NCBI GenBank assembly: GCA_030683995.1
Contig: JAUXPH010000034.1
Location: forward strand, 1-49,183
DNA: 49,183 nucleotides
Direction of reading: 5' to 3'
From: Lutibacter sp.
Lineage (GTDB): Bacteria; Bacteroidota; Bacteroidia; Flavobacteriales; Flavobacteriaceae
Shown piece by piece: positions 1,603 to 22,692 of the stretch. How positions within the stretch are numbered: position 1 is the stretch's first letter; the number at the start of each line of letters is the position of its first letter. Position numbers and translations under genes: made by a program. The notes beneath the pieces were generated by a model, which saw only the letters and a program-made list of their open reading frames with translations, was not told the DNA's origin and ran no database searches.

Positions 1603-1689
1603 TACGTGAACCCATTAATTTTATTGGCCCTCCGAGAGGTCACTTTATTTTTTTTGTGTATATTTATACTAATATAATTGCTAAAAAAT

Positions 1690-4001: not shown

Positions 4002-4230
4002 ACACCCAACTTGGGAGTTTTATCCAAATATTTAATTCTGTGATTATTTGATGTTATTTGGAATTCTAAACAGATTTCAAAACACCAAATAGCCACAAAT
4101 GAAACCAATAAATATTTTAAAAAAAACTTCGTTAACTTGTGATTTTTAATCGTTTATCTTTTACATATTTGCTTTAAGAAAAAGAAACAAATACAAACGT
4201 TCTTAATTATTAACTCAAAAATTGGAAAAG

Positions 4231-4506: not shown

Positions 4507-4515
4507 CCATCCCAA

Positions 4516-4547
4516 AAACCCCTTAAACCTGCTGGTTTAAGGGGTTT
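4516..4547 (+). terminator. Rho-independent terminator after the excisionase-like gene
   Basis: Perfect 14-bp stem AAACCCCTTAAACC / GGTTTAAGGGGTTT with a TGCT loop, ten bases after the stop codon. Confidence 0.85.
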
Positions 4548-4641
4548 AAAATTACCAATAATTTATTTTTTGCTGATTTCACACTAGCATATTGCTTTGT
4601 GAATAATCAGTTCTATAAACAACACCATAAATTTAAAAACA

Positions 4642-5301
4642 ATGAATTACATCAAACACCTTAATGCCGTTTTCCTGCAATTCTCGAAGGACAACCGATT
4701 GAATCCTTCACACATCAGCTTGTATATCGGATTGTTCCAGATTTGGAATTATAGCCGTTTTCCCGAAGAATTTTATATCAATCGGGAGGAAGTAATGCAA
4801 TTCTCTAAAATTGGCTCAAAATCAACCTATCATCGTTGTATCAGGGAATTGGATTCCTGGAAATACCTGATGTACAAACCATCATATAATCCGTTCAAAG
4901 GAAGCCGGGTGTTGTTGTTTCAATTTGAGACAAGTGATAATCAGGCGGCGGACTTTCCCATACCAAAATCAGGACAAGCGTTGGTATCTGTAACAAACAT
5001 TAATAAACAAATAATAAACTTTTATAAACTTGGGCAAGCCGAGAAAAAAAATGAAATTTTATCTTTTTTCAAAAAAGAAAACTGGCCCCAAATTGAAGCC
5101 GAAAAATTCTTCAACCACTACCAGGGAATTGGTTGGAAAATTGGCGGAAAAATAAAAATTGTCGATTGGCAGGCAACAGCCCAAAACTGGATGTTAAAAT
5201 TCAAAGAAATTCAAACAGAAAAAAACGCTTTTTTGCCACCAGTCCAAAATAGGGACAACTTGCATACCACTCGTAATAAAAACTACAATGAACCATTATA
5301 G
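4642..5301 (+). CDS. Winged-helix protein of mobile elements, probable replication or regulatory protein
   Basis: 219 residues from ATG 4642. Residues about 1-95 look like a winged helix: SLYIGLFQIWN, YINREEVMQFSKIGSKSTYH, CIRELDSWKYL. The C-terminal part, residues about 125-195, holds AEKFFNHYQGIGWKIGGKI and DWQATAQNWM, a pattern like the DnaD-type helicase-loading tail. Similar genes in Bacteroidota islands are annotated as transcriptional regulators and occur just before a DnaC-like ATPase, as here. The pair may form a replication-initiation or helicase-loading module. The tail after residue 195 is polar and probably disordered. The specific role is inference. Confidence 0.7.
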   Translation: MNYIKHLNAVFLQFSKDNRLNPSHISLYIGLFQIWNYSRFPEEFYINREEVMQFSKIGSKSTYHRCIRELDSWKYLMYKPSYNPFKGSRVLLFQFETSDNQAADFPIPKSGQALVSVTNINKQIINFYKLGQAEKKNEILSFFKKENWPQIEAEKFFNHYQGIGWKIGGKIKIVDWQATAQNWMLKFKEIQTEKNAFLPPVQNRDNLHTTRNKNYNEPL

Positions 5302-5337
5302 CAAAAATTTAACCCGCCATAGGATTTGAAGGCGAGC

Positions 5338-5422
5338 GTCAAATGTTTGAAGAATCCGCGAAAAGAAATGCTGTTTGAGCGCAGCGAGTTCATTTCTTTT
5401 AGGATTCAAAAACAAATTTGAC
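5338..5422. repeat. Long imperfect hairpin between the winged-helix and ATPase genes
   Basis: Nested complementary arms: GTCAAAT 5338-5344 with ATTTGAC 5416-5422, GAATCC 5352-5357 with GGATTC 5402-5407, and AAAAGAAATG 5361-5370 with CATTTCTTTT 5391-5400. The apical 20 bases contain GAGCGCAGCGAG. The base composition is richer in G and C than the flanking genes. No protein start fits it. It could be a structured RNA leader for the downstream ATPase gene or a DNA structure used in transfer; the sequence alone does not decide. Confidence 0.6.
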
Positions 5423-5527
5423 CTGCGAAAACCCAAGGATTGACTTTTTTGGTTCGTTTTAGTGTCAAGACAAAAATGAACAAACATGAAAAAAACGTAA
5501 AATCATTTATTTAACATCAAAAATGCT

Positions 5528-6211
5528 ATGAACCCAACACCACACATTAAAATCGAAGGCACCTCAAAATTTCAAATCGGAGAACTAAAAAACAACATCG
5601 TTCACTACGATTTTGAAAAAATAATAGCCTACCTCAACATCAAAGGCCATTTGATTTTCGATAAAAATTTCAAATTATACAAAGAAGACGAACCTTTGCT
5701 TTTTAAACTATGCTGTTACTTCATTCAAGACCACCAAACCTGTGCAAATATGGGAATCGACACCAACAAAGGATTGTTGCTTTCCGGTCCTATCGGCTGC
5801 GGTAAAACATCCCTAATGAAATTGTTGCCATACTTAGCACCGCACAAAACAAACTATGAAATTATTCCAACACGCAACATTGTATTTAATTTCAATGCAT
5901 CCGGATTTGAAGTATTAGAAAAATACAACGACACCAAAAACTACTGTTTTGATGATTTAGGCGTTGAACCAACAGGTTGCCATTATACCAAAGAATGCAA
6001 CGTCATGGGAGAAATACTGCTTTCGCGCTATGATATCTTTAAAGATGGAAGAGAGCCTGTCCTGAGCCTGCCGAAGGGGAAAACGCACATCACCACCAAC
6101 CTCAACGCCGAAGAACTTGAAGCACGTTATGGAGGCCGCGTTAGGAGCCGGTTACGTGAAATGTTTAACCTTATTAGTTTTGATAAAGCTTCTGTTGACA
6201 AGAGAAAGTAA
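5528..6211 (+). CDS. DnaC-like P-loop ATPase with an in-frame palindromic-repeat insertion
   Basis: 227 residues. Walker A GPIGCGKTS at about residues 90-98, Walker B YCFDDLGVE at about 140-148, then THITTNLNAEELEARYGGRV and RSRLREMFNLI, a pattern of DnaC/IstB-type helicase loaders and the P-loop ATPases of Bacteroidota islands. Between IFKDG and KTHITTN the protein has an unusual REPVLSLPKG stretch, encoded by bases 6057-6077, which look like a dispersed CCTTCG-GCTCAGG repeat inserted in frame. A duplicated copy of the gene's last codons follows at 6255. Likely substrate: loading a replicative helicase at the element's origin (inference). Confidence 0.8.
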   Translation: MNPTPHIKIEGTSKFQIGELKNNIVHYDFEKIIAYLNIKGHLIFDKNFKLYKEDEPLLFKLCCYFIQDHQTCANMGIDTNKGLLLSGPIGCGKTSLMKLLPYLAPHKTNYEIIPTRNIVFNFNASGFEVLEKYNDTKNYCFDDLGVEPTGCHYTKECNVMGEILLSRYDIFKDGREPVLSLPKGKTHITTNLNAEELEARYGGRVRSRLREMFNLISFDKASVDKRK

Positions 6212-7084: not shown

Positions 7085-8098
7085 ATGCTAAAAAGAAAAA
7101 AAATAAAATTCATCATAAATGTTATCATATTACTAATAACTATAAATAGTATTGGTCAAAAAACTAAAAATGATTTACAGGAATTCCCTAATGAAAAATA
7201 TACAATTAAATGGGTTGATCAATTCCCTAAAAGCGTTGATGTTAAACGAACTAAAAAAGGATGGTTTTCACGGTTTCTCTTTGGTGAGAAAAATAATCCG
7301 GAGATAACCAAACCCATTGCCATTTTAGCTTTAAACCCTTCAGAATTTTCAATATTGGATCAAGGAAGCGGAACGCTGTTTGAAATAAAAGATAATGAAA
7401 AAAAAATATCAAAAGCCTTCAAAAAGAGTAAAATCAATTTTCCATCACTGGTAAGTTATTGTAAAATACCAACAAACGAGTTACTGATTACCGATTCTCG
7501 TTTAAATGCTGTTTATAAATTAAATGAAGCGGAAAAAAAACTTACTGTTTTAAACACAAATCTTCAATTACAACAACCTACTGGTATTGCCTATTCTGAG
7601 GTTTCCAAAGAAATTTGGATAGTGGAAACAGCGGCGCATAGAATTTCTATTTTAAACGAAAAAGGAGAATTGATTAAAACCATTGGAAGAAGAGGTGACG
7701 CCTCCGGTGAATTCAATTTCCCAACTTCAATTTGGATAGATAAAATTGGAAACGCATATGTTATTGATGCTCTAAATTTTAGAGTTCAAATCTTTAATAA
7801 AGAGGGTGAAGTTATTTCCATATTTGGTGAAGCAGGAAATGCAACTGGCTATTTTGCAAGACCGAAAGGGATTGCCACAGATTCTAAAGGAAACATATAT
7901 ATTTCTGATGCATTATACCATACCGTTCAAGTTTTTGATATTACGGGAAATTTTTTATATCAATTTGGGGAACAAGGAAGAGATAAAGGACAATTTTGGA
8001 TGCCTGCCGGTATTTACATTGATGATAATGATTTTATTTATGTTGCAGATATGTACAATGCGAGGGTTCAAATATTTCAACGTATTAATAAGGAGTAA
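7085..8098 (+). CDS. Exported NHL-repeat beta-propeller protein
   Basis: 337 residues from ATG 7085; a TTG at 7061 is in frame but lies at the -7 element and cannot be the start. The N-terminus has basic residues, then a hydrophobic stretch ending SIGQ, a signal peptide. From about residue 165 on there are NHL-type repeats, each with a GEF-FP/GYFARPKGI-type turn, then a strand such as GNIYISDA---TVQVFD and FGE-G. A six-bladed propeller is expected. Propellers of this sort accompany extracellular multiheme cytochromes in Geobacter-type clusters, possibly as assembly or scaffold proteins; the exact role is not known. It is probably co-transcribed with the 12-heme cytochrome at 8222 from the promoter at 7021. 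Confidence 0.82.
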   Translation: MLKRKKIKFIINVIILLITINSIGQKTKNDLQEFPNEKYTIKWVDQFPKSVDVKRTKKGWFSRFLFGEKNNPEITKPIAILALNPSEFSILDQGSGTLFEIKDNEKKISKAFKKSKINFPSLVSYCKIPTNELLITDSRLNAVYKLNEAEKKLTVLNTNLQLQQPTGIAYSEVSKEIWIVETAAHRISILNEKGELIKTIGRRGDASGEFNFPTSIWIDKIGNAYVIDALNFRVQIFNKEGEVISIFGEAGNATGYFARPKGIATDSKGNIYISDALYHTVQVFDITGNFLYQFGEQGRDKGQFWMPAGIYIDDNDFIYVADMYNARVQIFQRINKE

Positions 8099-8101
8099 AA
8101 A

Positions 8102-8187
8102 ATGAAACGAGCCTTACAAATTTTGACACACAAAGGAATGATTAATGGCGAACCTACCGGCAGGCAGGCAGGCAGGCAGGCAGGCAG
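8102..8187 (+). repeat. Dispersed intergenic repeat followed by a GGCA tetranucleotide tract
   Basis: 8102-8152 resembles 39631-39682 (starting ATGAAACGAGCC and ending AATGGCGAAC), which lies in the same position before arsM. It is followed by seven GGCA units at 8159-8186. The stretch is open as a 33-codon frame, MKRALQIL..., but the mutated copy at 39631 has an early stop, so I do not call a gene. It lies between the NHL gene and the 12-heme cytochrome start at 8222. Confidence 0.65.
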
Positions 8188-8221
8188 AATCTGTTACCGC
8201 TAAAAAATAGAATTTGAACAG

Positions 8222-9919
8222 ATGAAAAATATCACAACCCTAATTTCAATTATTTTAGTAAGTTTCCCCACGTTGGTAAACTCACAATCTATTGTGACCA
8301 CAAAGCACAATTTATCGGTGAGCGGTTTGGGAGCTATTAAGGCCACTACAGAAAATGAAATATGCATTTTTTGCCATACCCCGCATAACAGCACTCCTAA
8401 AGCACCGTTATGGAATAGAAATGTAAACGGAGGAACCTATACTTTGTACAATAGCTCTACCTTAAACGCGCTGCCTGGGCAACCGGATGGCAGTTCTATT
8501 TTATGTTTATCATGTCATGATGGCACCATTGCTTTAGGCGATGTTGTGAGCAGGGCAACCCCCATAACCATGTCTAGCTTAAAAATAACAGGAAAATCAA
8601 ATCTTACCACTGATTTATCTAACGACCACCCTATTTCTTTCGCTTACAATGCAGCTTTGGCAGCTTCAGACGGACAGTTAAAAACGCCTCCGCTATCTGT
8701 TGTTTCTTTAGATAAAAATTCAAAAATGCAGTGTACTTCTTGTCACGACCCCCATAAAGAAACAAATCCAAAATTTTTGGTTGCTTCCACACAGTTTTCT
8801 GCATTGTGTTTACAGTGCCATAACAAAACATATTGGGGAAGCAGCACGCATAAAACCTCCACGAAAACTTGGAACAATGCTGGCACAAGCCCTTGGGCAC
8901 ATGTTACCGCACCTTATGCCAACGTTACACAAAATGCATGCGCAAACTGCCATGACCCACACAACGCCAATGGCAAAGCCCGTTTATTAAAGTATTTACC
9001 TGAAGAAAATAACTGTTTAGATTGCCATAATGGAAATGTTGCGACTTCAACAAAAAATATACAAGCACAGTTTGCAAAAACGTACAAACATAATGTTGCT
9101 GGTTATACAGGTACCCATGACCCTATTGAAGCAAATGCTGTAACCACAAAACATGTTGAATGTGCAGACTGCCATAACCCGCATGCATCCAATGCTACTA
9201 CGGCAGTGGCACCATTTGTAAATGGAACCAGTATTGGGGTAAAAGGCATTAACCAAGCCGGTAATGCGGTGGCTGTTGCCACCAATGCTTATGAAATTTG
9301 TTATAAATGCCATGCAGGCAATTCATGGGCGCCAGCACCGGCTTTGCCAAGACAAATTGTTCAAAACAATGTACGCTTAGAATTTGCAACTACGAACCCT
9401 TCTTATCACCCAGTTGTAGGTGCCAGAAATGATGCTGAAATTACCCCAAATTTAGTGTCACCCAATACCGCAAGTACCATTATGTATTGTACGGCCTGCC
9501 ATGCAAGTAACAATAGTGCAGACCCTAAGGGGCCGCATGGTTCTACAAACCAATATTTGTTAAAACTCAACTATTCTACAGCCTATACTGGCACTACTGG
9601 AATAACTGAATCTGCCACAGCTTATGCGCTTTGTTACAGTTGCCATAATAGAACCAATATTATAGGGGGCTCCAATACTTTTAGAGAACATAATAAGCAT
9701 ATTGTTGGGGAGAGGGCTCCTTGCAGCATTTGCCATGACCCTCATGGGGTTAGCAGTACGCAAGGGTCTCTATCTAGAAATGGTCGATTGATTAATTTTA
9801 GGACAGATAAAGTAACACCAGATTCAGGCGGTAGATTGTATTGGCAAGATGATGGAGCAAGAAGAGGAAGATGTTATTTAACGTGCCATGGAAAAAACCA
9901 TAGCCCATTAACATATTAA
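8222..9919 (+). CDS. Twelve-heme c-type cytochrome, exported
   Basis: 565 residues with an N-terminal signal peptide (hydrophobic to about residue 20, ending NSQ). There are eleven CXXCH motifs (CIFCH near residue 48, then CLSCH, CTSCH, CLQCH, CANCH, CLDCH, CADCH, CYKCH, CTACH, CYSCH, CSICH) and a twelfth of CX3CH type, CYLTCH at 551-556. Many are followed by DPH or NPH, as in doubled-CXXCH families. The first ~210 residues match the whole tetraheme protein at 10129 (CHTPHN, APLWN, QPDGSS-LCLSCHDG, DLSNDHP-SF-Y, MQC-SCHD-H, ALCL-CHNK), so this protein is that module with an eight-heme extension. Likely an extracellular or outer-surface electron carrier. Confidence 0.92.
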   Translation: MKNITTLISIILVSFPTLVNSQSIVTTKHNLSVSGLGAIKATTENEICIFCHTPHNSTPKAPLWNRNVNGGTYTLYNSSTLNALPGQPDGSSILCLSCHDGTIALGDVVSRATPITMSSLKITGKSNLTTDLSNDHPISFAYNAALAASDGQLKTPPLSVVSLDKNSKMQCTSCHDPHKETNPKFLVASTQFSALCLQCHNKTYWGSSTHKTSTKTWNNAGTSPWAHVTAPYANVTQNACANCHDPHNANGKARLLKYLPEENNCLDCHNGNVATSTKNIQAQFAKTYKHNVAGYTGTHDPIEANAVTTKHVECADCHNPHASNATTAVAPFVNGTSIGVKGINQAGNAVAVATNAYEICYKCHAGNSWAPAPALPRQIVQNNVRLEFATTNPSYHPVVGARNDAEITPNLVSPNTASTIMYCTACHASNNSADPKGPHGSTNQYLLKLNYSTAYTGTTGITESATAYALCYSCHNRTNIIGGSNTFREHNKHIVGERAPCSICHDPHGVSSTQGSLSRNGRLINFRTDKVTPDSGGRLYWQDDGARRGRCYLTCHGKNHSPLTY

Positions 9920-10039
9920 TTGTCAAAATATATTTTAAACCAATCTACCTCCAAATACACCCTTTTTAATGCGGTTTGCATTAAATATGCTACCATTTGC
10001 AAAAAAAAATGAAAAAAAAGTAATAAATGTTACATAACC

Positions 10040-10082
10040 TGATTTAAATCATCCTTTTAGGGCTTTTTCACCCTTAAATTTG
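10040..10082 (+). promoter_or_regulatory. Crp/Fnr-type promoter for the tetraheme cytochrome
   Basis: Palindrome TGATTTAAATCA at 10040-10051, -7 element TAAATTTG at 10075-10082, again exactly 35 bp apart start to start. The leader before the ATG at 10129 is about 40 bases. Confidence 0.75.
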
Positions 10083-10128
10083 TACAAGAATTAAAAATTA
10101 TAACATTTTTTTAACATAAAACAACAAC

Positions 10129-10752
10129 ATGAAAACACAAAAATTAATTACACTAATCGCTGTAGCATTTATCACAGTGGTATCTTTCGGTCAAACTATT
10201 GTTGGTTCTGCGCATGATTTTAAGGCTGCATCTTGGAATGCTTCAGGTGAAATTTGCAAAACATGTCACACACCTCACAACGCTGTTACAGGTATAAGCG
10301 CTCCACTATGGAATCACCAAGTAACAACACAAACTTTTACTTTATACACAACTGCAGTTTCTCCTACTTTTAATGGAACTACAGCACAACCTGATGGCTC
10401 TTCAAAATTATGTTTAAGCTGCCATGACGGTGTTACAAAAGTTGATAATTTTAATGGAGTTACTACTGGTACTACTTCAATTACAGGTGCGGCTAATATA
10501 GGAACAGATTTATCTAATGACCACCCAGTATCATTTTTGTATGACGCTGCTTTAGCAACTGCTGATGGCGGTTTATTTAATCCAGCTGTAGCACTTTCAG
10601 GGAAAGGCAGTACAATTACTGCAGATTTATTACTTGCCAATAAAATGCAATGTTCTTCATGTCACGATGTGCATAATGGCTCGGGTGTTAATAATTTATT
10701 GGTAAAAACAAATGCTGCAAGTGCACTTTGTTTAACTTGCCATAACAAATAA
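10129..10752 (+). CDS. Tetraheme c-type cytochrome, OmcE-like candidate filament subunit
   Basis: 207 residues: signal peptide to about residue 21 (VVSFGQ), then four hemes, CKTCH, CLSCH, CSSCH and CLTCH. The last heme motif is followed only by NK and the stop. Conserved blocks are GSAHDF, EICKTCHTPHN, APLWNH, QPDGSSKLCLSCHDG, DLSNDHPVSF and MQCSSCHD-H. From family knowledge, this size, heme number and block order resemble the tetraheme OmcE group whose members polymerise into extracellular heme filaments; that this protein does so is inference. It has its own promoter and a strong terminator, so it can be made at a different level from its neighbours, as a filament subunit would need. It could instead be a monomeric periplasmic carrier. 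Confidence 0.88.
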   Translation: MKTQKLITLIAVAFITVVSFGQTIVGSAHDFKAASWNASGEICKTCHTPHNAVTGISAPLWNHQVTTQTFTLYTTAVSPTFNGTTAQPDGSSKLCLSCHDGVTKVDNFNGVTTGTTSITGAANIGTDLSNDHPVSFLYDAALATADGGLFNPAVALSGKGSTITADLLLANKMQCSSCHDVHNGSGVNNLLVKTNAASALCLTCHNK

Positions 10753-10766
10753 GATTTTAAGCACAT

Positions 10767-10795
10767 AAAAAAAGGGGCAATTTGCCCCTTTTTTT
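10767..10795 (+). terminator. Terminator after the tetraheme cytochrome
   Basis: Stem GGGGCA 10774-10779 / TGCCCC 10783-10788 extended by seven A-T pairs, followed by a run of T, 14 bases after the stop. It isolates the tetraheme gene as a single-gene transcript. Confidence 0.85.
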
Positions 10796-10897
10796 ACGCT
10801 TTTTTTAGTAACCTAATTTTTAGTGTCTATTTTTAAACCCTCTGTTTTTAAATAGAATAACAGCTTTATTGGCTTCTAACTTATTGGTCTTAAAAGG

Positions 10898-10940
10898 TGA
10901 TTTTAATCATCTCTTTTTGTTTGGGTTTTAGCTACTTTTA
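10898..10940 (+). promoter_or_regulatory. Crp/Fnr-type promoter for the lipoprotein-cytochrome-barrel operon
   Basis: Palindrome TGATTTTAATCA at 10898-10909 and -7 element TACTTTTA at 10933-10940, start-to-start distance 35 bp. It drives the gene at 10984 and probably those through 16117. Confidence 0.72.
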
Positions 10941-10983
10941 CACTTTAAATTAACATACTAACCATTCGAAAAATCAAATTTAT

Positions 10984-12081
10984 ATGACTTTCAAATCCTA
11001 CTTCAAGTATTCGCTGTTTACACTTTTTTTAACATTGATACTTTCCTGCTCTCCTAAATTAAATAAAATTTCTTCAGTAAAAAGTGTTTTATACCCAGCA
11101 GCGCCAGACACTGCCCGCATTCAATATTTAACCAGTATTAGTAGTTCTTTCGATATTTCAAAAAAACAAACTGCTTTAGAAAAAACGGTAATTGGAGAGA
11201 AAAATGCACTACCTATTTACAAACCTTATGGTGTGTTTATGCGTAACGGAAAAATGTATGTGTTTGATATTGCATTGGGTGGCGGGCTTGAAATTTTGGA
11301 TTTTGCAAAAAATGAATTTAATTATTTTGCTCCAAAAGGAACATTTAAGTTAGATAAACCTATTAATGGATATGTAGACGAAAATAATATGCTTTATATC
11401 GCAGATTTAGGTTTGCAAAAAATTGCGGTTATTGATCCAGAAGGAACTTATGTAAATTCTTTTGGCAAAGAGGAAAACGAAAAACCTTCATCTGTTACTC
11501 TACAAGGAAACAAAATATTTGTTGCTGATTTAGGAACCAACCGCATTAATGTGTATGATAAAGCAACCTATAAATTTGAATACTATTTCCCACAAGCATT
11601 ATCTGGAGACAAAGATTATTTATACTCACCCGCCAATATAACTGCATTAAATGATAAGATTTATGTGAGCGATATGGGAAGCGGTGATGTTAAAATATTT
11701 ACGTTAAAAGGAAAATACCTGCAAACCATTGGGCAATACGGAAAAAATATTGGAGATTTTGTACGCCCAAAAGGCATTGCCGTTGATAAAGAGGGAAATA
11801 TATATGTGGTGGATGCCAGTTTTGAAAACATACAAGTTTTTAACAAAGAAGGGCAACTGTTGCTATTTTTTGGAGGCCATTATGTAGATAAAGGTGATAT
11901 GTGGTTGCCAACTTCTGTAAACATAAATTATGAAGATATCAAGTATTTTGAAAAATATGTAAACCCAAACTATGATTTAAAATATTTAATAATAGTAGCC
12001 AATCAATACGGACCAGACAAAATTAGCGTTTATGGTCGCGTGGAACCAAAAGTTAAAACTTCAACCCCTAAAAAGAAATAA
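10984..12081 (+). CDS. NHL-repeat beta-propeller lipoprotein
   Basis: 365 residues with a lipoprotein signal, hydrophobic stretch and LILSC lipobox, cysteine at about residue 22. The rest is repeated propeller strands: GVFMRNGKMYVFD, NMLYIADLG--KIAVID, NKIFVADLGTNRINVYD, DKIYVSDMGSGDVKIF and RPKGIAVDKEGNIYVVD. The C-terminus is basic (PKKK). It is related in fold to the propeller at 7085, but membrane-anchored. First gene of the set 10984-16117, which also encodes a nine-heme lipoprotein, a beta-barrel and an eleven-heme protein. It may hold or orient cytochromes at the outer membrane; this is inference from context. Confidence 0.82.
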   Translation: MTFKSYFKYSLFTLFLTLILSCSPKLNKISSVKSVLYPAAPDTARIQYLTSISSSFDISKKQTALEKTVIGEKNALPIYKPYGVFMRNGKMYVFDIALGGGLEILDFAKNEFNYFAPKGTFKLDKPINGYVDENNMLYIADLGLQKIAVIDPEGTYVNSFGKEENEKPSSVTLQGNKIFVADLGTNRINVYDKATYKFEYYFPQALSGDKDYLYSPANITALNDKIYVSDMGSGDVKIFTLKGKYLQTIGQYGKNIGDFVRPKGIAVDKEGNIYVVDASFENIQVFNKEGQLLLFFGGHYVDKGDMWLPTSVNINYEDIKYFEKYVNPNYDLKYLIIVANQYGPDKISVYGRVEPKVKTSTPKKK

Positions 12082-12162
12082 ACTGGCATAAACGATAAAG
12101 TAAACATGATTTAAGTTTTATTAAAAATAACACCAATTAATACAACTTAGATTCCAATAAAA

Positions 12163-13020
12163 ATGAAAGGAAATACATCAAAATACTTCAACTACTTTTT
12201 ATTTATAATAGTTATTTCTTTTTTTTGGACTTGTTCACCAAAATTAAGCTATGAGGTGAAATCTTTTTTATTTGATGGGGTTCCAAATCCATATAAAGTT
12301 GAAGTAACGGTTATTCAAGATTCCCTTACAAAAGCTAAAGAATTAAACACTGCTAATGCTGTAACATCAACCGCAGCCAGGAACGATTTGAATATTCACG
12401 CTCCTTACCAAGAGCGCAAATGCACAGATTGTCATACCCGTGATCGCATGGGAAAACCAAAATTACCAATGCCTGAATTATGCAATCAGTGCCACGAAGA
12501 TTTTACCAAAAAATACACAAATATTCACGGCCCTATTGCCACAGGAAATTGCACGGAATGCCATAACCCACACCAATCTAAATTTAAAAAATTATTGAAA
12601 TTTGAAGGACAGGATCTTTGTTTAAACTGCCACACTTCAGCTCAAGTAACTGAAAACAAAATTCATAAAGATATCAATACTACCAGTTGCACTGAATGTC
12701 ACAACCCACATGGAGGTTCTAATAAATTTAATTTAGAAAAAGGAAGTTGTTATAAATGCCATGATAATTTAGAGAAAAAACTGCCTTTTTTACATGGTCC
12801 TATAGCAAGTAATAACTGTTCACAATGTCATGATTCGCATACATCGCCTTCTGAAAAATTATTGCTGGATGTTGGCCAAAAACTATGTTACAATTGCCAT
12901 AACCCCAAAGAAGTGAAATCGCAAAAACACCATCAAACCATGAAAGGTGAAAGTTGCACCAAATGCCATAATCCACATGGTGGAACAACTGCTAATTTTC
13001 TTAAAATTAGTTCCAAATGA
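12163..13020 (+). CDS. Nine-heme c-type cytochrome, probable lipoprotein
   Basis: 285 residues. The N-terminal hydrophobic segment ends FFWTC, an unusual but plausible lipobox followed by SPKLSYEVKSF. After a heme-free spacer of about 60 residues come nine CXXCH motifs: CTDCH, CNQCH, CTECH, CLNCH, CTECH, CYKCH, CSQCH, CYNCH and CTKCH. Distal-ligand histidines in HGPIA and CHNPHGG patterns recur about every 30-45 residues, the doubled-CXXCH arrangement. The stop overlaps the ATG of the beta-barrel gene by four bases (ATGA), so the two are likely translated together and may form a complex. Together with the barrel and the eleven-heme protein it resembles a porin-cytochrome conduit. Confidence 0.9.
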   Translation: MKGNTSKYFNYFLFIIVISFFWTCSPKLSYEVKSFLFDGVPNPYKVEVTVIQDSLTKAKELNTANAVTSTAARNDLNIHAPYQERKCTDCHTRDRMGKPKLPMPELCNQCHEDFTKKYTNIHGPIATGNCTECHNPHQSKFKKLLKFEGQDLCLNCHTSAQVTENKIHKDINTTSCTECHNPHGGSNKFNLEKGSCYKCHDNLEKKLPFLHGPIASNNCSQCHDSHTSPSEKLLLDVGQKLCYNCHNPKEVKSQKHHQTMKGESCTKCHNPHGGTTANFLKISSK

Positions 13021-14999
13021 AAAAAATAAATTTATTTTATATGCTATTTATATTTTCAGCCTATGGTTTTTCACAAAACAGCTTAGTTGAACCTGCATTT
13101 TGGAAACTTACGTCATTAAATGGAGAGTTATATTTAAATGGAGAATATTGGGAACAACAAACCGTAAGAAATAATTATACAGAAGAATTAAATAGCACAC
13201 TTTTTTCAGGCGGGTTATTTTTAAATTCTAAGAGTTATTTTTACCATCCAAATTTTCTTGAAGTAACCCTTGATGCCGGTTATAGCCCCGAAACAGGACA
13301 ACGCTTGTCTTTAGTGGCTCCAGACCAAGCTGAAACAAATACGCTAAAAAAGTTATATACACAGTTTTCATTTTTTCAACATGCTGCATTAAACTTAAAA
13401 GTGTTTGCTAATATTAATGAAGGGTATAGCAATAGAGAGAATTTAACCAATTTAAAAACTAATTTTCAGAATTTTGGAGGAACTTTAGCATATAGCAATA
13501 AATTTCTTCCAGTGTCGGTCACCTACAATAAAGGAAGCTCGGAATTACAGGAATTGCAAACAGGCAGAAGCTATAAAACTGAAAATAATTCTATAGAAGG
13601 CAGGGCTTTTAAATCTTTTGGCAGGAATGATACACATCAATTTATTTTTTCACAGAATAAGTATGTATATGATGATCAGTTTATGGCTTTAAATCAAATT
13701 CAATCAGGAACTTTAATTGAAAATAAAATTACTTCTTTAAGTTTAAACGATAACATTTATTTTGACACCAAAAAAAACTATAATTTTAATTCTTTGGTTT
13801 CACAAGAAAATCAAATTGGCAATAATTTAGATTACAAAAGGCTTCAAGTAATTGAAAATTTATTTTTTAAATTGCCCTATAAATTTAATTTTTCATCCAA
13901 CTATAATTTCTTTGACATTAAACAAAATACAATAGCTTCAAAACAACAAAACGCAAGTGCCTCCTTGACGCACCTTCTTTACGAAAGTTTATATACAAGT
14001 GTTAATTATGAGTACAATACCATTAATAGCACACAATTTAAGGAAACGAATAAAAGAACAGGTTTTGAAGCAAGATATGTTAAAAAAATACCTTTAAAAG
14101 GCCTTTTAACACTGCAATATAAACTGAATACCAATGAACAAGACAGAACTAGCGAAGATTTAGTATTAACGATTTTAAATGAAGCGTACACCATAACTGA
14201 TGGACAGATTGTTCTATTAAAAAACCAAAGTGTTAATGTGCTAAGTGTGCTGGTAAAAGATGTAACCGGAACTATTATTTATCAAGAAAATTTAGATTAC
14301 ATTTTAATTGTAAGAAATGATTTTTTAGAAATTCAGCGAATTCCCGGGGGACAAATTGCAAATAATTCCACTGTTTTTATTGATTATGGGGCTACCCAAC
14401 CAAGTTCCTATAAATATAATGCCGTTACCACCAATTATGGCGCAAACATCGCTTTCTTCAACAATAAAATTGAGTTTTTTTATAGTAAAGGAAAACAAGA
14501 TTTTTTAGACCCAGTTAATGTGGATTTTTTTACCTTAGATTATTATACCCAAAATGTTTACGGAGGTCGATTTAACCTCGGGTTTCTTAGCGGTGAAATT
14601 GAGCAGGATAATTTTAACAGCACCATTATTCCTTATAGATTAACAAGATATAATTTGGTTTTGCAAGGAAATATTGGCGAGCGTTTTTTATATAATTTAA
14701 ATGGCACCGTTAGAGATTATCAAATGATTATTGAAGAAGGAAATAAACAAAAATATATAAGTCTTTCAGGAAATATTGCTTGCAATATTAGCAGAATTAC
14801 CAACCTTAGCCTTCAAGGTAGCTATTTGAAACAAAACGGTGATGGAATTGATCTGAATTTAATTACCTCCAGAATTCAACTTAATACCCGTTATCGTCAA
14901 ATTTTTATCACTGCAGGGTTAGAGGTCTATAAAAACGAGTTTTATAATGAAAACCTAGATTTTAAGAAATTTAATATTCGCATTTCAAGAAAATTTTAA
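13017..14999 (+). CDS. Outer-membrane beta-barrel, candidate porin of a cytochrome conduit
   Basis: 660 residues. Signal peptide to about residue 19 (YGFSQ), then many alternating-hydrophobic strands with aromatic girdles (FKLPYKFNFSSNYNFF, ISLSGNIACNIS) and a C-terminal Phe (ISRKF), typical of outer-membrane barrels. Around residues 385-465 there is a non-barrel insert with EIQRIPGGQIANNSTVFIDY, resembling a small beta domain seen in other large barrels. There are no CXXCH motifs. The four-base overlap with the nine-heme gene before it and the eleven-heme gene after it fit a barrel that passes electrons across the outer membrane by enclosing cytochromes, as MtrB-type and Geobacter porin-cytochrome systems do. 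Sequence similarity to those is not evident to me, so the role is inferred from context. Confidence 0.8.
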   Translation: MKKINLFYMLFIFSAYGFSQNSLVEPAFWKLTSLNGELYLNGEYWEQQTVRNNYTEELNSTLFSGGLFLNSKSYFYHPNFLEVTLDAGYSPETGQRLSLVAPDQAETNTLKKLYTQFSFFQHAALNLKVFANINEGYSNRENLTNLKTNFQNFGGTLAYSNKFLPVSVTYNKGSSELQELQTGRSYKTENNSIEGRAFKSFGRNDTHQFIFSQNKYVYDDQFMALNQIQSGTLIENKITSLSLNDNIYFDTKKNYNFNSLVSQENQIGNNLDYKRLQVIENLFFKLPYKFNFSSNYNFFDIKQNTIASKQQNASASLTHLLYESLYTSVNYEYNTINSTQFKETNKRTGFEARYVKKIPLKGLLTLQYKLNTNEQDRTSEDLVLTILNEAYTITDGQIVLLKNQSVNVLSVLVKDVTGTIIYQENLDYILIVRNDFLEIQRIPGGQIANNSTVFIDYGATQPSSYKYNAVTTNYGANIAFFNNKIEFFYSKGKQDFLDPVNVDFFTLDYYTQNVYGGRFNLGFLSGEIEQDNFNSTIIPYRLTRYNLVLQGNIGERFLYNLNGTVRDYQMIIEEGNKQKYISLSGNIACNISRITNLSLQGSYLKQNGDGIDLNLITSRIQLNTRYRQIFITAGLEVYKNEFYNENLDFKKFNIRISRKF

Positions 15000-15031
15000 T
15001 ATAAAGAAAATAAATCATAAAATAAGAAAAA

Positions 15032-16117
15032 ATGGAAACAGCCAAAAACAAACAAACTAAAAATTTTGGATTAACTTTTAATAAATTTTCGCTAATTCTT
15101 CTCATAGCATGTGTTTTAATTCCCAATATGGCAGTATTTGGTCAAAGTGATGGTAATGATAACGCTTGTGTTGAATGCCATAAACGTACGGTGCAAAAAG
15201 ACATATTACATGGGCCAACCGCCACCAGTTGCACAAGCTGCCATGAGTCAAATGGTAAAAAACATCCATTGGCAGATGTGGTTGGTTTTACCCTTTTTGC
15301 GGAGGGTGCCGAGTTGTGCTATTCTTGTCATACCGTATTTAAAGAGGAACAAAATTTGAAATTTGTGCACAAGCCTGTAAAAAACGGCGAATGTTCAGAA
15401 TGTCATGAAGTGCATAGCTCCAATAATAAGAACTTGGTGTTTGCCAAATCGCCGGAATTGTGTTTTTTTTGCCACAGCAATTTTGACAAAGACCGTGAAA
15501 AAGCGAAAAGCATACATACGGCTTCCTATGCTGGAGATGCCTGTACACAATGCCATAAGCCACATGCCTCTGCTGAGAAAAAATTATTGGCAGACAACAG
15601 CAAGCAGTTGTGTTTAAACTGTCACAATAAAAAGATAGAAAAAAAGGACGGTGCCATTATTGCCAATATTGAAAAGCATTTGACGGAGAGTTCATATATG
15701 CACAAAGCCTTAAGCAGCAGTTGTACTTCGTGCCATAATCCACATTATTCATCAAGAAACTTATTATTAACTGATAACTTGCCTATAGGCATTTATGCAA
15801 AAGGAGTAGAAGAAAACTTTGCTTTGTGTTTTGGATGCCATGATACAGATTTATTGAATTTGGAAAAAACGGATTCATATACCCAATTTAGAGAAGCCGA
15901 CCAGAATTTGCATTTTTTACATGTGAATAAAGAAAAAGGGAGAAATTGCACCTCTTGTCACGATGTTCATGCAGCCAATAACACCAAATTAATTGCAAAA
16001 ACCGTTAAATTCGGCAGGTGGGATATGCCTTTGAATTTTATTGAAAATGAAAATGGAGGTACTTGCGCAACAGGTTGCCATAAAGAAAGAAGCTATTCAA
16101 GAGGAGCGGTTAAGTAA
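15032..16117 (+). CDS. Eleven-heme c-type cytochrome, exported
   Basis: 361 residues. There is a cytoplasmic N-tail of about 18 residues, then a hydrophobic segment ending VFGQ, so a long signal peptide. Ten CXXCH motifs (CVECH, CTSCH, CYSCH, CSECH, CFFCH, CTQCH, CLNCH, CTSCH, CFGCH, CTSCH) are followed by a terminal CX3CH, CATGCH at 345-350. Histidines recur as HGPTA, HKPV, HEVHSS, HNPHYSS and HDVHAAN, giving bis-His ligation in the doubled-CXXCH style. Lacking a lipobox, it may be the periplasmic partner of the barrel, with the nine-heme lipoprotein as the outer part or the reverse. It ends the operon; a terminator follows at 16210. Confidence 0.9.
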   Translation: METAKNKQTKNFGLTFNKFSLILLIACVLIPNMAVFGQSDGNDNACVECHKRTVQKDILHGPTATSCTSCHESNGKKHPLADVVGFTLFAEGAELCYSCHTVFKEEQNLKFVHKPVKNGECSECHEVHSSNNKNLVFAKSPELCFFCHSNFDKDREKAKSIHTASYAGDACTQCHKPHASAEKKLLADNSKQLCLNCHNKKIEKKDGAIIANIEKHLTESSYMHKALSSSCTSCHNPHYSSRNLLLTDNLPIGIYAKGVEENFALCFGCHDTDLLNLEKTDSYTQFREADQNLHFLHVNKEKGRNCTSCHDVHAANNTKLIAKTVKFGRWDMPLNFIENENGGTCATGCHKERSYSRGAVK

Positions 16118-17193: not shown

Positions 17194-17811
17194 TTATGGC
17201 AATATAACTATAACAGCGTCTTCCATAATAACTTTATAAAAATAACCTGATCCAAAATTTTTATTTACAGAAATTACACCTTCAAAAATAACCACATCAC
17301 CCTCCGTTACATTTTCCTGGCAAGTAATAGTAAGGTCATTGTCACCTTCAAAGCTAGTTCCATCTTCTAAATGTAACCAATTTTCCCCCATAATTACACC
17401 ACTATATTTGGTAATTTTACCTTTTACTTTTATTTTTTTCCCTGAGTATTGCTTTTTGTTTTTATACAATTCCTCAATACTTATAAAATCATCTAAAGAT
17501 TTCACCTTGGTCATAAATCCCAAAAAAAGCATAGAATCAAATTTTCTTCCAAGCTCTTTGCTTTCAAAATTCATCACTTCTCGATCTCTTTTATAATAGC
17601 AACTATCTCCTGTTTTGGCTTCAATAGTTGGAACCGCAATCCATTTTTTCACACCATCTTCTAACACATTAAGGTAGGTGTAAGAACTTACCTGAATGAC
17701 TTCTTGCACAATGACTTTTTTAAGCCCGTTTTCTGGATGTGGATTTTGAGCAACAATTACCATACTAGAAAGTAAGATGCTCATTACAAGTACTGTTTTT
17801 ATTGTTTTCAT
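17194..17811 (-). CDS. Exported OB-fold-like protein, third of three paralogues (NrfJ-like)
   Basis: 205 residues, signal peptide to about residue 21 (VIVAQ). Two related halves are visible: an N-terminal strand block, KVIVQEVIQVSSYTYLNVLEDG-KKWIAVP, and a C-terminal OB-type block, KIKVKGKITKYSGVIMGENW, then HLEDGTSFEGDNDLTI and GSGYFYKVIMEDA. No Cys pair or heme motif. The same blocks occur in the two genes upstream. In Wolinella a small protein NrfJ is encoded beside the CcsBA-type NrfI; this family may be related, but I cannot verify it. Last gene of a three-gene minus-strand set transcribed from the shared promoter at 19387. Confidence 0.65.
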   Translation of the reverse strand: MKTIKTVLVMSILLSSMVIVAQNPHPENGLKKVIVQEVIQVSSYTYLNVLEDGVKKWIAVPTIEAKTGDSCYYKRDREVMNFESKELGRKFDSMLFLGFMTKVKSLDDFISIEELYKNKKQYSGKKIKVKGKITKYSGVIMGENWLHLEDGTSFEGDNDLTITCQENVTEGDVVIFEGVISVNKNFGSGYFYKVIMEDAVIVILP

Positions 17812-17905
17812 GTTTATATATTATTTTTCAATGACAACAAGGAACTAGCTAGTAATCAATTTCTTAGTTAAAAATATTCATCAGCATATCTCATCAAAAA
17901 TACTA

Positions 17906-18619
17906 TTATTTTACATTCGTTGCATCTTCCATAATAACTTTATAAAAATAACCTGCACCAAAATCTTTATCAAGGGCAATCACACCTTCAAAAACTATTA
18001 TGTCGCCAACCAATACATTTTCCTGACAGGTAACCATCAAATCATAGGCACCTTCAAAGCTGGTTCCATCTTGAAAATGCACCCAGTTTTTACCCATAAT
18101 TCCACTACTAAACTTGGTTACTTCTCCTTTAATCTTAATTCTTTTTTCAGCGTAATTTTGTTTGTTTTCAAACAATTCTCCTATACGAGTTCCCCCCTCT
18201 ACACCTTCAATTTTCAATTCTAATTTATCCAGCGTAGGCTGTTTGGTGTTGGTTTCTGCAACTTCAGCATTTGGGTCTACCATTCCTTTTTCCGGATCAA
18301 TGATATCTGCACTTGTTATGGAACCTAAGAAAATGACAGTATCAAAAGTTCTATTCAATTCTGCGCTGTTAAAATCGGGCATTTCCATACCACCTTTATA
18401 ATAGTAGGTTTCTCCAAGTTTTGCATCCATAGTAGGAACTGCCAACCATTTTACAGAATCATCTTCTTCTAAAACATATAGATAAGTATAGGAACTAACT
18501 TGAAGCACTTCTTTTACAATTACTTTTTTTAATCCGGTTTCTGCATGTGGATTTTGAGCTATCCCCATAAATCCAATAAGAAATAAACCAATAATGAATA
18601 TTTTTTTTGATGAGTTCAT
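17906..18619 (-). CDS. Exported OB-fold-like protein, second of three paralogues (NrfJ-like)
   Basis: 237 residues, signal peptide ending GIAQ. It repeats the paralogue pattern VIVKEVLQVSSYTYLYVLEE and, later, IKIKGEVTKFSSGIMGKNW, HFQDGTSFEGAYDL, DFGAGYFYKVIMEDA. Between the halves is an acidic linker (about residues 105-145) absent from the gene downstream. A possible role is in handling apocytochromes or heme during maturation, since the gene is divergent from ccsBA and shares its operator; this is inference from position only. Only about 19 bases separate it from the gene upstream, so co-transcription is likely. Confidence 0.65.
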   Translation of the reverse strand: MNSSKKIFIIGLFLIGFMGIAQNPHAETGLKKVIVKEVLQVSSYTYLYVLEEDDSVKWLAVPTMDAKLGETYYYKGGMEMPDFNSAELNRTFDTVIFLGSITSADIIDPEKGMVDPNAEVAETNTKQPTLDKLELKIEGVEGGTRIGELFENKQNYAEKRIKIKGEVTKFSSGIMGKNWVHFQDGTSFEGAYDLMVTCQENVLVGDIIVFEGVIALDKDFGAGYFYKVIMEDATNVK

Positions 18620-18638
18620 TTATTTTATAATTAACTAG

Positions 18639-19352: not shown

Positions 19353-19386
19353 TTTAAAATTGTTTAGTATAAATAATTTAATGAGA

Positions 19387-19460
19387 CAAATATATAAGAA
19401 TTTTCACATCGGTATGCTGACAATTGTCACTTTTAGTTTTGCTTTATTATGTTACTTTTG
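19387..19460. promoter_or_regulatory. Symmetric divergent Crp/Fnr-type promoter for ccsBA and the OB-fold genes
   Basis: A perfect palindrome TGACAATTGTCA lies at 19418-19429. On the plus strand a -7 element TACTTTTG is at 19453-19460. On the minus strand TATATTTG is at 19394-19387. Each is exactly 35 bp from the first T of the palindrome on its own strand. One dimer could therefore activate both directions from the -41.5 position. This also shows that ccsBA cannot start at the in-frame ATG 19360, which is upstream of its promoter. Confidence 0.78.
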
Positions 19461-19491
19461 CTACATATTAAAAAATGAATTTACTAATATT

Positions 19492-22400
19492 ATGAAAAAA
19501 TTATTAAACATACTTTACTCACCAAGAACAACGCTCGGTCTTTTGGTGATATTCGCCATTGCAATGGGCGCGGCCACTTTTATTGAAAATTCGTATGACA
19601 TCATAACTGCCAAAATATTGGTTTATAACGCAATATGGTTTGAAGTTTTAATGGTCTTAATGATCATAAATTTTTATGGAAGCGTTAAGCGATACAATTT
19701 ATTTACATGGAAAAGAATGTCAGGATTTATTTTTCACACTTCCTTTATTGTGATGATTATTGGCGCAGGCGTAACCCGTTATTTTGGATTTGAAGGGAGA
19801 ATGTCAATTAGGGAAGGAAGTTCATCCGATTTTATTTTTAGCGATCAAACTTATTTAAATGTAAGGGTAAATGACGGCACTAAGGAATTTGTGGTTGACA
19901 AAAAGTTATCCTTAGGAATGATTACCGACAATTCATTTAATGTGGAAGTTGAAACTCCAAGTAAAGGAACCATTGAAATAAAGTATAAAGATTATTTGAA
20001 AAATGTACAAGAAACCTATACGGAAGGAAAGGAAGGTGGCTTTACCATGTTGTCATTAATGGTTAATGATGAAGGTGGCCATAAACATGAAGTTCAGCTA
20101 AAAGATGGTGAAATTACCATGTTGCACAATGCTGCTGTATCATTTAATAACAATCAACGTCCAGACGCTCTAAAAATAACAGGGAATGCCGATCAGTTAT
20201 ATATTAGCTATCCTGCCAACATTATAACTGCTGAAATGCCCGATATGACAGCCGGCCTAATCTTAAAAGACAGTTTAGCTGATTTCAGCCGTATGCGTTT
20301 ATACCAACCGGAAGGATCTGGAATTGCGATGTCTTTGACGAAAGTAACTAAAAATACTGTTGTAAAATATGTAGAAAGCACATTGGATCAAAATGGTCCT
20401 GGTGCATTGATTCTTGATGTTACACACAATGGAAAATCTCAAGAAGTAACGATTCTAGGAGGGCCAGGATATATTGAAAACTTTATGGAAATACCTTTAG
20501 ATGGAATAAATATGAAACTAGCCTATGGCGTAAAAAAAATCCCTTTGCCATTTTCCTTACAGCTTAACAAATTTGAACTTGATCGCTATGCAGGCTCTAT
20601 GAGCCCGTCATCTTACGCAAGTGAAGTGACTTTAATAGATAACCGAAAAGGCATTATAAAAGACCATCGAATTTTTATGAACAATGTATTGGATTATGAT
20701 GGCTATCGCTTTTTTCAATCGTCTTATGACCAAGATGAAAAAGGAACAGTGCTGTCTGTAAATCATGATTATTGGGGAACCTTGATTACTTATTTGGGTT
20801 ATGCATTAATGATTATAGGATTTGTTTGGACCCTGTTTAACAAAAATTCCAGATATTGGGATTTAATGGGTAAAATAAGACTGCTTCGCGAGCAAAGAAA
20901 ATCCTTAACAATATTGGTTTTAATGCTTATAAGCACAACAAGTGTATTTGCACAGCTGCAAGAGCCGCATAATCATGGAGAGCAAGTAAATCCTTGGGCT
21001 GTGAGCGCTGAACATGCCGATAAATTTGGGGAAGTGATCGTTCAATCGTATGAAGGCAGATTTTCGCCAGTACATACATTGGCGGTTGACGTGATGCATA
21101 AAATTTCAAGAAAGGATAAATTTGAAATTCCCGGAAGAGGTAAAATGACCTCCATTCAGGTATTTTTGGATTTGCCTTTGAATGCAGAATTTTGGAAAAA
21201 CCAAAAAATGATTTATGTAAGCGAAAAATCGGTAACTGATATTATTGGCGTTACAGGAAAATTAGCATCGTTTAATCAGTTTTTTGATGAAAAAGGACAA
21301 TATAGATTACAATCATTTGCTGAAATAGCTTTTAGAAAACCAGATGCTGAACGCAATAAATTTGACAAGGAAATTATCAAAGTGAATGAGCGCTTGGAAG
21401 TATTTATGATGACCTTTCAAGGGAATATGCTAGATATTTTTCCTGTACAAAATTCAGAAAATAACAAATGGGTTAGCTGGGACGATGAATTGGCAAAACA
21501 GGAATTAACTGGAAGCCTGAGCGTTATCAATGATGATTTGCAATTGCCGGTTTTGAATTACAGCAGTATTATGCGTGCTTATTTTATGGAACTTATCAAC
21601 GCTACCAAAACCAATAATTATAGCAGGGCAGATAAATTATTGGGTTATATTAAATCGATTCAGCGACAAAGTTCATCCTCAGAAATAATTCCTACGGAAG
21701 CAAAAATTAAAAGTGAAATTAGTTACAACAAATCGAATATATTTATCAACCTGAAAAACATTTATGGGTTGTTAAGCGTATTGCTTTTATTTCTTGCTTT
21801 TGTTGACAATCTTCGAACCAAAAAAAGCAAAATATTGACTTGGTCCTTAAATACTTGCATTTCAATATTGGCGGTAGGTTTTATATACCACACTTACGGA
21901 ATGGGAATGCGCTGGTACTTGTCTGGACACGCACCTTGGAGCAATGGTTACGAAGCCTTAATTTTGGTTTCTTGGGCAAGTTTATTGGCCGGGTTCAGCT
22001 TTATGCGCTATTCAAAAATTACTTTGGCAGCAACATCTTTACTTGCGTTTTTTACTTTAATGACGGCTAGTCACAGTAGTTATGATCCGCAACTGACCAA
22101 CCTTCAACCTGTATTGAAATCGTTTTGGCTAATTATCCATGTGGCTACCTTAACCATCAGTTATGGGTTTTTAGGACTTGGATTTGTTTTAGGATTTTTT
22201 AATATGGGAATTTACCTATTTAAAACCCCTAAAAATGCAAAGCGTCTTTCTTTAATTACCAGGGAATTAACCTATATCAACGAAATGAATTTAACCATAG
22301 GATTGTTCTTGGCAACAGTTGGTACATTTCTTGGCGGTGTTTGGGCCAATGAATCTTGGGGCCGCTATTGGGGCTGGGATGCGAAAGAAACCTGGGCTTT

Positions 22401-22692
22401 GGTTATTACCATTGTGTATACCATTATTTTACACTTAAGATTGGCACCGAAAATTAAAGGAGAATTTATTTTTAATGTGGCTTCTATTTTCGGATTTGGA
22501 TCGGTATTAATGACATTTATTGGCGTAAATTATTACTTTACCAAAGGAATGCACTCTTATGGAAGTGGAGAAACTCCAGTTTTTCCAATGTGGGCATGGA
22601 TCACTATTTTTGCTGTTATAGGCTTGGTTGTGATTGCCGGTCTAAAAGAAAGAAGCAATAAAAAATACAACGCAACAAACAATGCAGAATAA
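19492..22692 (+). CDS. ccsBA: Fused cytochrome c synthase CcsBA (ResB-CcsA)
   Basis: 1066 residues from ATG 19492; in-frame upstream ATGs are rejected because the promoter lies at 19418-19460. The N-terminal half is ResB/CcsB-like: YSPRTTLGLLVIFAIAMGAATF, several membrane segments to about residue 120, then a large periplasmic domain and another segment near 440. The C-terminal half is CcsA with six or more membrane segments, the tryptophan-rich heme-binding WWD region ESWGRYWGWDAKETW near 954-968, and flanking histidines in HAPW (813) and HSYGSGE near the end. It transports heme and attaches it to CXXCH motifs. With some 37 heme sites encoded around it, it probably serves this locus. A terminator follows. 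Confidence 0.95.
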   Translation: MKKLLNILYSPRTTLGLLVIFAIAMGAATFIENSYDIITAKILVYNAIWFEVLMVLMIINFYGSVKRYNLFTWKRMSGFIFHTSFIVMIIGAGVTRYFGFEGRMSIREGSSSDFIFSDQTYLNVRVNDGTKEFVVDKKLSLGMITDNSFNVEVETPSKGTIEIKYKDYLKNVQETYTEGKEGGFTMLSLMVNDEGGHKHEVQLKDGEITMLHNAAVSFNNNQRPDALKITGNADQLYISYPANIITAEMPDMTAGLILKDSLADFSRMRLYQPEGSGIAMSLTKVTKNTVVKYVESTLDQNGPGALILDVTHNGKSQEVTILGGPGYIENFMEIPLDGINMKLAYGVKKIPLPFSLQLNKFELDRYAGSMSPSSYASEVTLIDNRKGIIKDHRIFMNNVLDYDGYRFFQSSYDQDEKGTVLSVNHDYWGTLITYLGYALMIIGFVWTLFNKNSRYWDLMGKIRLLREQRKSLTILVLMLISTTSVFAQLQEPHNHGEQVNPWAVSAEHADKFGEVIVQSYEGRFSPVHTLAVDVMHKISRKDKFEIPGRGKMTSIQVFLDLPLNAEFWKNQKMIYVSEKSVTDIIGVTGKLASFNQFFDEKGQYRLQSFAEIAFRKPDAERNKFDKEIIKVNERLEVFMMTFQGNMLDIFPVQNSENNKWVSWDDELAKQELTGSLSVINDDLQLPVLNYSSIMRAYFMELINATKTNNYSRADKLLGYIKSIQRQSSSSEIIPTEAKIKSEISYNKSNIFINLKNIYGLLSVLLLFLAFVDNLRTKKSKILTWSLNTCISILAVGFIYHTYGMGMRWYLSGHAPWSNGYEALILVSWASLLAGFSFMRYSKITLAATSLLAFFTLMTASHSSYDPQLTNLQPVLKSFWLIIHVATLTISYGFLGLGFVLGFFNMGIYLFKTPKNAKRLSLITRELTYINEMNLTIGLFLATVGTFLGGVWANESWGRYWGWDAKETWALVITIVYTIILHLRLAPKIKGEFIFNVASIFGFGSVLMTFIGVNYYFTKGMHSYGSGETPVFPMWAWITIFAVIGLVVIAGLKERSNKKYNATNNAE

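What the first reader, a model, noticed from the sequence alone, without database searches (positions are those of the whole stretch)
7085..16117. Candidate extracellular electron-transfer route: OmcE-like tetraheme filament subunit plus an outer-membrane conduit in a Bacteroidota
Seen directly: cytochromes with 12, 4, 9 and 11 heme motifs, a barrel overlapping the nine-heme gene by four bases, two NHL propellers, and fused CcsBA nearby. The 207-residue tetraheme protein shares blocks (CHTPHN, APLWN, QPDGSS, LCLSCHDG, NDHPVSF) with the first third of the 12-heme protein and, from family knowledge, with the OmcE group of filament-forming cytochromes. Inference: the tetraheme protein polymerises into a heme nanowire fed through the barrel. 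Such a set in a Flavobacteriia would extend known nanowire distribution.
Basis: partly seen in the sequence, partly recalled or inferred. Interest (0 to 1): 0.88.

Follow-up and report, generated by a model that had tools for sequence, protein, structure and literature searches.

The report
OmcE-type cytochrome filament cassette with adaptor
This stretch of a Bacteroidota genome carries a seven-gene set that probably builds an electricity-conducting protein thread on the cell surface, and one of its genes looks like a natural joint between that thread and the outer membrane, a part that is not yet understood.

Summary

The 12-heme protein is an OmcE protomer fused to an eight-heme domain. It recurs in 39 of 45 long neighbourhoods of the tetraheme gene and in 11 phyla. 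In the order of a Geopsychrobacter MAG it is often split into two adjacent genes (25 of 31 separate C-part ORFs). I read it as the adaptor that starts or caps an OmcE-type filament and wires it to a porin-cytochrome conduit. The cassette is patchy in its genus and lies beside an integrase/RteC element, so horizontal acquisition is likely. Known: OmcE filaments and their wide distribution. Probably new: the fused adaptor and its cassette, though three key papers were not held.

The parts
7085..8098 (+). NHL1: exported NHL beta-propeller, partner gene of the 12-heme protein
   Evidence: PF01436 2e-22; an NHL gene lies just upstream of 46 of 47 c565 genes with enough flank
8222..9919 (+). c565: 12-heme cytochrome = OmcE-type protomer (residues 1-202) + eight-heme C-domain (203-565); proposed filament adaptor
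   Evidence: phmmer to OmcE 7tfs 1.3e-34 over residues 10-202; Foldseek only significant hit 7tfs; often two adjacent genes in the order of the L062 genome
10129..10752 (+). c207: tetraheme OmcE-family cytochrome, proposed filament subunit
10984..12081 (+). NHL2: NHL beta-propeller with a lipoprotein-like signal (LSC, read by eye), partner gene of the tetraheme
   Evidence: PF01436 3.8e-10; an NHL gene within 2 kb after c207 in 63 of 67 loci with enough flank
12163..13020 (+). c285: nine-heme cytochrome with a lipoprotein-like signal (read by eye), conduit cytochrome (5 hemes in many relatives)
   Evidence: PF09699 2e-46; partial match to MtrA 6r2q_A 3.1e-13; C24 invariant in 4 of 4 orthologues
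13017..14999 (+). Predicted outer-membrane beta-barrel; its start overlaps the end of c285 by 4 bases
   Evidence: AlphaFold2 mean pLDDT 90.9, about 28-30 long strands; Foldseek outer-membrane barrels, MtrB 6r2q_B fifth at 7.7e-8
15032..16117 (+). c361: 11-heme exported cytochrome, proposed periplasmic conduit cytochrome (5 to 23 CXXCH in relatives so labelled)
   Evidence: PF09699 2.1e-46; partial match to MtrA 6r2q_A 1.1e-10
19360..22692 (+). Fused ResB-CcsA (cytochrome c maturation), accessory
   Evidence: PF01578 1.6e-31, PF05140 1.7e-20; also beside the cassette in G007 and G011

Best explanation
A horizontally acquired extracellular electron-transfer cassette. The barrel (13017-14999) with the periplasmic 11-heme cytochrome and the nine-heme lipoprotein forms a porin-cytochrome conduit across the outer membrane. 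The exported tetraheme c207 polymerises head to tail into an OmcE-type heme filament, one distal histidine ligating a heme of the neighbouring subunit. The 12-heme protein carries one OmcE protomer whose last-heme end continues into an eight-heme domain, so it can sit only at one end of a filament: as the base joining conduit and filament (more likely), or as a terminal cap. The NHL propellers are probably surface assembly or tethering factors, one per OmcE-type partner. Shown: homology, ligand conservation, gene order, fused and split forms, predicted barrel fold. Inferred: polymerisation, localisation, contacts and direction of electron flow.
Against: No c207-subfamily member has a solved structure in the PDB lists seen. 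In a quick tree OmcE and 9yuq fall on the c565N side of the split, not inside the c207 clade. Desulfopila sp. IMCC35008 has the tetraheme but no c565 match at 1e-15, so the adaptor is not obligatory. In the c565 model residues 22-83 and 101-130 have pLDDT below 50. MtrB similarity is weak (TM 0.40) and other outer-membrane receptors rank above it. No quinol oxidoreductase was found among the seven proteins.
Confidence: 0.55

Rival explanations
1. The cassette is an electron conduit without filaments: c207 and c565 are soluble or surface-bound OmcE-fold shuttles that reduce humics, metals or partner proteins.
For: No filament shown for the c207 clade; OmcE and 9yuq lie outside it. Similar heme arrangements occur in non-filamentous cytochromes (PMC12954529, passages).
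Against: The two solved relatives are OmcE, a filament, and 9yuq with 16 chains; both have the same four distal His, and in OmcE one heme is ligated by a histidine of the adjacent subunit (PMC9473688, passages).
Confidence: 0.25
2. The 12-heme protein is not an adaptor but a second, minor wire subunit or a terminal reductase that exchanges electrons with the filament tip.
For: Its N-domain scores OmcE higher than c207 does. Its eight-heme C-domain has no PDB relative (best E 0.13), so its role is open.
Against: A protomer with 363 extra residues behind its last heme could hardly stack repeatedly in an OmcE-like chain (inference). In split genomes the C-part stays a neighbour of the N-part.
Confidence: 0.2

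Closest known systems
Geobacter sulfurreducens OmcE filament (PDB 7TFS)
   Same: Tetraheme, full-length similarity, four aligned distal histidines
   Different: Different subfamily in a quick tree; Bacteroidota-type host; a 12-heme partner and conduit genes in one cassette
PDB 9YUQ 'putative multiheme cytochrome c' (16 chains; entry title not seen)
   Same: Full-length similarity 1.7e-27; exactly four non-motif His, all kept in c207; gene behind an NHL gene in G505
   Different: c207 lies outside its clade
MtrAB / porin-cytochrome conduits (PDB 6R2Q)
   Same: Multiheme gene coupled to a large barrel gene; partial c285/c361-MtrA similarity, barrel hit to MtrB
   Different: 99.3 and 87.3 bits against a 192.2-bit cut-off of the DmsE-type decaheme model; TM 0.40 for the barrel
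Eight-gene OmcS maturation block GSU2500-GSU2493 (Shen 2025, not held; cited in PMC12977616, passages)
   Same: A conserved accessory block beside a wire-forming cytochrome
   Different: Serves OmcS; its gene content was not compared here
Novel PCC types in Bacteroidetes, and PCC3/PCC4 (PMC6344600, PMC5566968, passages)
   Same: Porin plus multiheme genes outside the Mtr and Omb families
   Different: No OmcE-type subunit or fusion in the passages seen; sequences not compared

Membership tests
OmcE-type filament cytochrome (c207) | Full-length sequence similarity to OmcE | tested here: met
OmcE-type filament cytochrome (c207) | Four c hemes, each with a distal His, at the shared positions | tested here: met
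   H29, H50, H132, H182 align with the four non-motif His common to OmcE and 9yuq
OmcE-type filament cytochrome (c207) | Inter-subunit His ligation and polymerisation | not testable with these tools
   No multimer or heme modelling; no experiment
OmcE-type filament cytochrome (c207) | Falls in the clade of the solved OmcE-type proteins | tested here: not met
   Quick FastTree puts OmcE and 9yuq on the c565N side of the c207/c565N split, support 0.992; long branches
OmcE fold (c565 N-domain) | Predicted fold matches OmcE | tested here: inconclusive
   Foldseek 7tfs 7e-6, 202 alignment columns, TM 0.54 by target, but residues 22-83 and 101-130 have pLDDT < 50
Mtr-type porin-cytochrome complex | Barrel homologous to MtrB | tested here: inconclusive
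   No Pfam or credible PDB sequence hit; 6r2q_B rank 5 by E-value, TM 0.40
MtrA/DmsE decaheme family | Reaches the curated score of TIGR03508 | tested here: not met
   c285 99.3 and c361 87.3 bits, cut-off 192.2

The most novel reading that the evidence does not exclude
The OmcE-octaheme protein is the junction of cytochrome nanowires: it nucleates or anchors an OmcE-type filament on the outer-membrane conduit, and with two NHL assembly factors, barrel and conduit cytochromes it forms a self-contained, transferable nanowire island that occurs in at least 11 phyla.
Probability: 0.38. Interest if true: 0.87.

Novelty: new variant of a known kind. Interest (0 to 1): 0.64.

Why it matters
How cytochrome wires are secreted and anchored is still called speculative (for OmcS; PMC12307469, passages). 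A conserved gene that is part wire subunit and part separate cytochrome, found fused in 11 phyla and often split in the order of a Geopsychrobacter MAG, gives that question a specific testable protein. It also offers a genomic marker (NHL-fusion plus tetraheme-NHL-multiheme-barrel) for possible wire-based respiration in bacteria not known for it.

Tried and rejected
Chance similarity from heme motifs: rejected by the masked control, in which c285, c361 and c565C give no signal. WD-40 proteins in the PDB lists were rejected as repeat artefacts; the one such alignment shown (7bie) is many short matches around residues 18-57. 'Every genome with the tetraheme has the adaptor' was rejected: loci L047, L064, L067, L068, L084 and L089 lack c565 within the flank; L068's genome has it about 14 kb away, Desulfopila sp. 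IMCC35008 (L064) has none at 1e-15. Filing c285/c361 as MtrA/DmsE: rejected, below cut-off. A single vertical origin in the family: not favoured by the c565 tree. c207 alone was not folded (both jobs went to c565 and the barrel). VIA-align was not available. The papers on the OmcE structure, ubiquitous nanowires and the OmcS machinery are not held and were not read.

The script counted 25 of 29; two weaker separate C-part rows of G569 had been left out, neither with a listed N-part nearby, so it is 25 of 31.

Full report
Observation. The barrel gene starts at 13017 and the nine-heme gene ends at 13020, a four-base overlap. Histidines suffice for bis-His ligation: 29, 9, 19 and 23 for 12, 4, 9 and 11 hemes.

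OmcE membership. phmmer of the 207-residue protein against the PDB gives 9yuq (218 aa, 1.7e-27) and OmcE 7tfs (3.7e-25) over almost the full length; a four-row profile gives 2.4e-35 and 1.4e-33. The other rows (WD-40 proteins and weak hits) were judged artefacts or chance. The 12-heme protein gives only these two at E up to 0.1, 7tfs at 1.3e-34 over residues 10-202. As control, c285 and c361 do not match OmcE at E up to 0.1. With every CXXCH masked, Z against 300 shuffles (OmcE, 9yuq) is 23.7 and 22.6 for c207, 34.5 and 19.2 for c565 residues 21-202, and -1.0 to 0.9 for c565C, c285 and c361.

Ligands. 9yuq 4-218 has four motif histidines and exactly four others (KH, TPH, NDH, DVH; read). OmcE has the same four plus one more. 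The four are in c207 (H29, H50, H132, H182) and in c565 (H29, H55, H136, H178). Across 75 c207 rows, picked by length, score and exactly four CXXCH (the four window-side rows added), three are invariant and H50 is at least 90% conserved; across 52 c565 rows, picked by length (540-680 aa), score and 10-12 CXXCH, the four are invariant. In OmcE one heme is ligated by a histidine of the adjacent subunit (PMC9473688, passages). I could not read which; it should be among these four if every heme of 9yuq and OmcE is bis-His, so the ligand is probably kept. Polymerisation itself is inference.

The fusion. c565 is an OmcE protomer (to residue 202) followed by 363 residues with seven CXXCH and one CX3CH. 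The C-part alone has no PDB relative (best E 0.13). The model of c565 (mean pLDDT 74.9; residues 22-83 and 101-130 below 50) has one significant Foldseek hit of five listed, 7tfs (7e-6, TM 0.54 by target). In 78 genomes of the order of the L062 genome (a Geopsychrobacter MAG), 45 match the c565 profile. From the rows listed (the list was cut), 31 are C-part matches in ORFs under 500 aa; 25 have an N-part match 56-483 bases upstream on the same strand (which counted 29 and left out two weaker G569 rows). Six have none listed (G489, G507, G538, G549, and both G569 rows). Eight further C-part rows lie in ORFs over 500 aa; for one of them (G541) the sequence shows stops between the parts, so those ORF lengths are not a safe test of fusion. 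In four fetched loci (L137-L140) an NHL gene, a four-heme gene and a seven-CXXCH gene follow each other. Two loci picked because the match looked fused are fused: L145 carries all seven kinds of gene; L146 six, with no tetraheme in the stretch (matches lie beyond its end in the same contig). Fused in some lineages and neighbouring genes in others argues for physical cooperation.

Geometry (inference). An OmcE protomer ends with its fourth heme motif. In c565 the chain runs on from there into more hemes, so this end cannot accept another protomer in the usual way, while the other end is free. c565 can thus sit only at one end of a filament, base or tip. Because the same cassette carries the conduit, base is my first choice.

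Cassette. Titles name Bacteroidota, Chlorobiota, Calditrichota, Ignavibacteria, Nitrospirota, Planctomycetota, Marinimicrobia, Hydrogenedentota, Deltaproteobacteria/Desulfobacterota, Gammaproteobacteria, Verrucomicrobia and others; most are MAGs, so single placements may be binning errors. Where flank allowed: an NHL gene within 2 kb after c207 in 63 of 67; barrel within 5 kb downstream in 51 of 58; c565 in 39 of 45; an NHL gene just before c565 in 46 of 47. One locus (L092) had no c207 ORF with three or more motifs and was left out of the first three. These loci are the best matches, so the rates hold for this subfamily, not for all OmcE relatives. treekit labels on the 52-row c565 tree name 11 phyla.

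Solved relative. The same genome carries the split NHL / N-part / C-part locus (L137). So a genome whose tetraheme protein is solved with 16 chains in one entry has a counterpart of both modules. The entry title was not seen; that it is a filament is inference.

Conduit. The barrel has no Pfam family and no credible PDB sequence relative. From a 61-row alignment AlphaFold2 gives mean pLDDT 90.9 with about 28-30 long strands and a small insert near residues 394-450. Foldseek finds outer-membrane barrels; the first four are the receptors Cir and PirA, MtrB (6r2q_B) is fifth by E-value with the highest query TM of the 50 rows listed, 0.40, too low to claim homology. c285 and c361 match MtrA partially but stay far below the DmsE-type cut-off. 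A porin-cytochrome conduit is the best reading, not an Mtr member.

Horizontal transfer. Of 100 genomes searched, own included, 5 match c207: own, G007, G011, G040 and weakly G026. Of 37 same-genus genomes, several of them incomplete, only G007 and G011 hold the cassette. In the phylum sample 5 of 395 genomes match at 1e-15, own included. In the c565 tree the window, G007 and G011 sit in a supported eight-row group (100/99) with Bacteroidota MAGs, while G040 (same family) and Aestuariivivens marinum form another pair (100/99), so the family was probably entered at least twice. In G040 the parts lie on two contigs. A tyrosine recombinase and RteC lie at 1678-4001, just upstream. All 14 doubled-CXXCH matches of the genome lie inside the cassette. 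One NrfH/NapC-type and several NrfD-type genes exist elsewhere, so the quinol partner is open.

Literature. OmcE homologues are reported across bacteria and archaea (PMC12307469, passages). Novel porin-cytochrome clusters in Bacteroidetes were reported (PMC6344600, passages). The 2025 review calls secretion and anchoring of OmcS wires speculative. Ten searches and the passages opened showed no account of the fused protein or this cassette, but three key papers are not held, so a prior description there cannot be excluded.

Verdict. OmcE-family membership: near certain. Filament: likely, not shown. Adaptor role of c565: the most interesting inference, well placed for test.

Noticed in passing
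window 1678-6211: Tyrosine recombinase, RteC and a weakly helicase/AAA-like protein: looks like part of a conjugative-transposon-type element directly upstream of the cassette.
   Followed up: partly
window 17194-19352 (-): Three similar proteins of 205-237 aa with no Pfam family above cut-off; relatives lie beside the cassette in G007 and G011, and near the c565 gene in G040.
   Followed up: partly
window 31826-34414: 862-aa protein with a TIR domain and weak STAND-type NTPase matches, resembling anti-phage defence proteins.
   Followed up: no
L013:6029-6481 (genome G011): A second tetraheme copy that appears interrupted (one TGA in the match, N-terminal part not matched).
   Followed up: no
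L013:14890-15902 (genome G011): NHL1 reads as two adjoining ORFs, so it may be broken or carry a sequencing error.
   Followed up: no
L016:8629-9084 (genome G026): Short 151-aa four-heme protein with weak similarity to c207 in a different neighbourhood.
   Followed up: no
c285 homologues in L017-L093: The conduit cytochrome before the barrel has nine motifs in the Flavobacteriaceae, Cyclobacteriaceae, some other Bacteroidota and one Chlorobiota locus, but five in most other loci.
   Followed up: no
window 28599-28997: Small cytochrome c (PF00034) outside the cassette.
   Followed up: no
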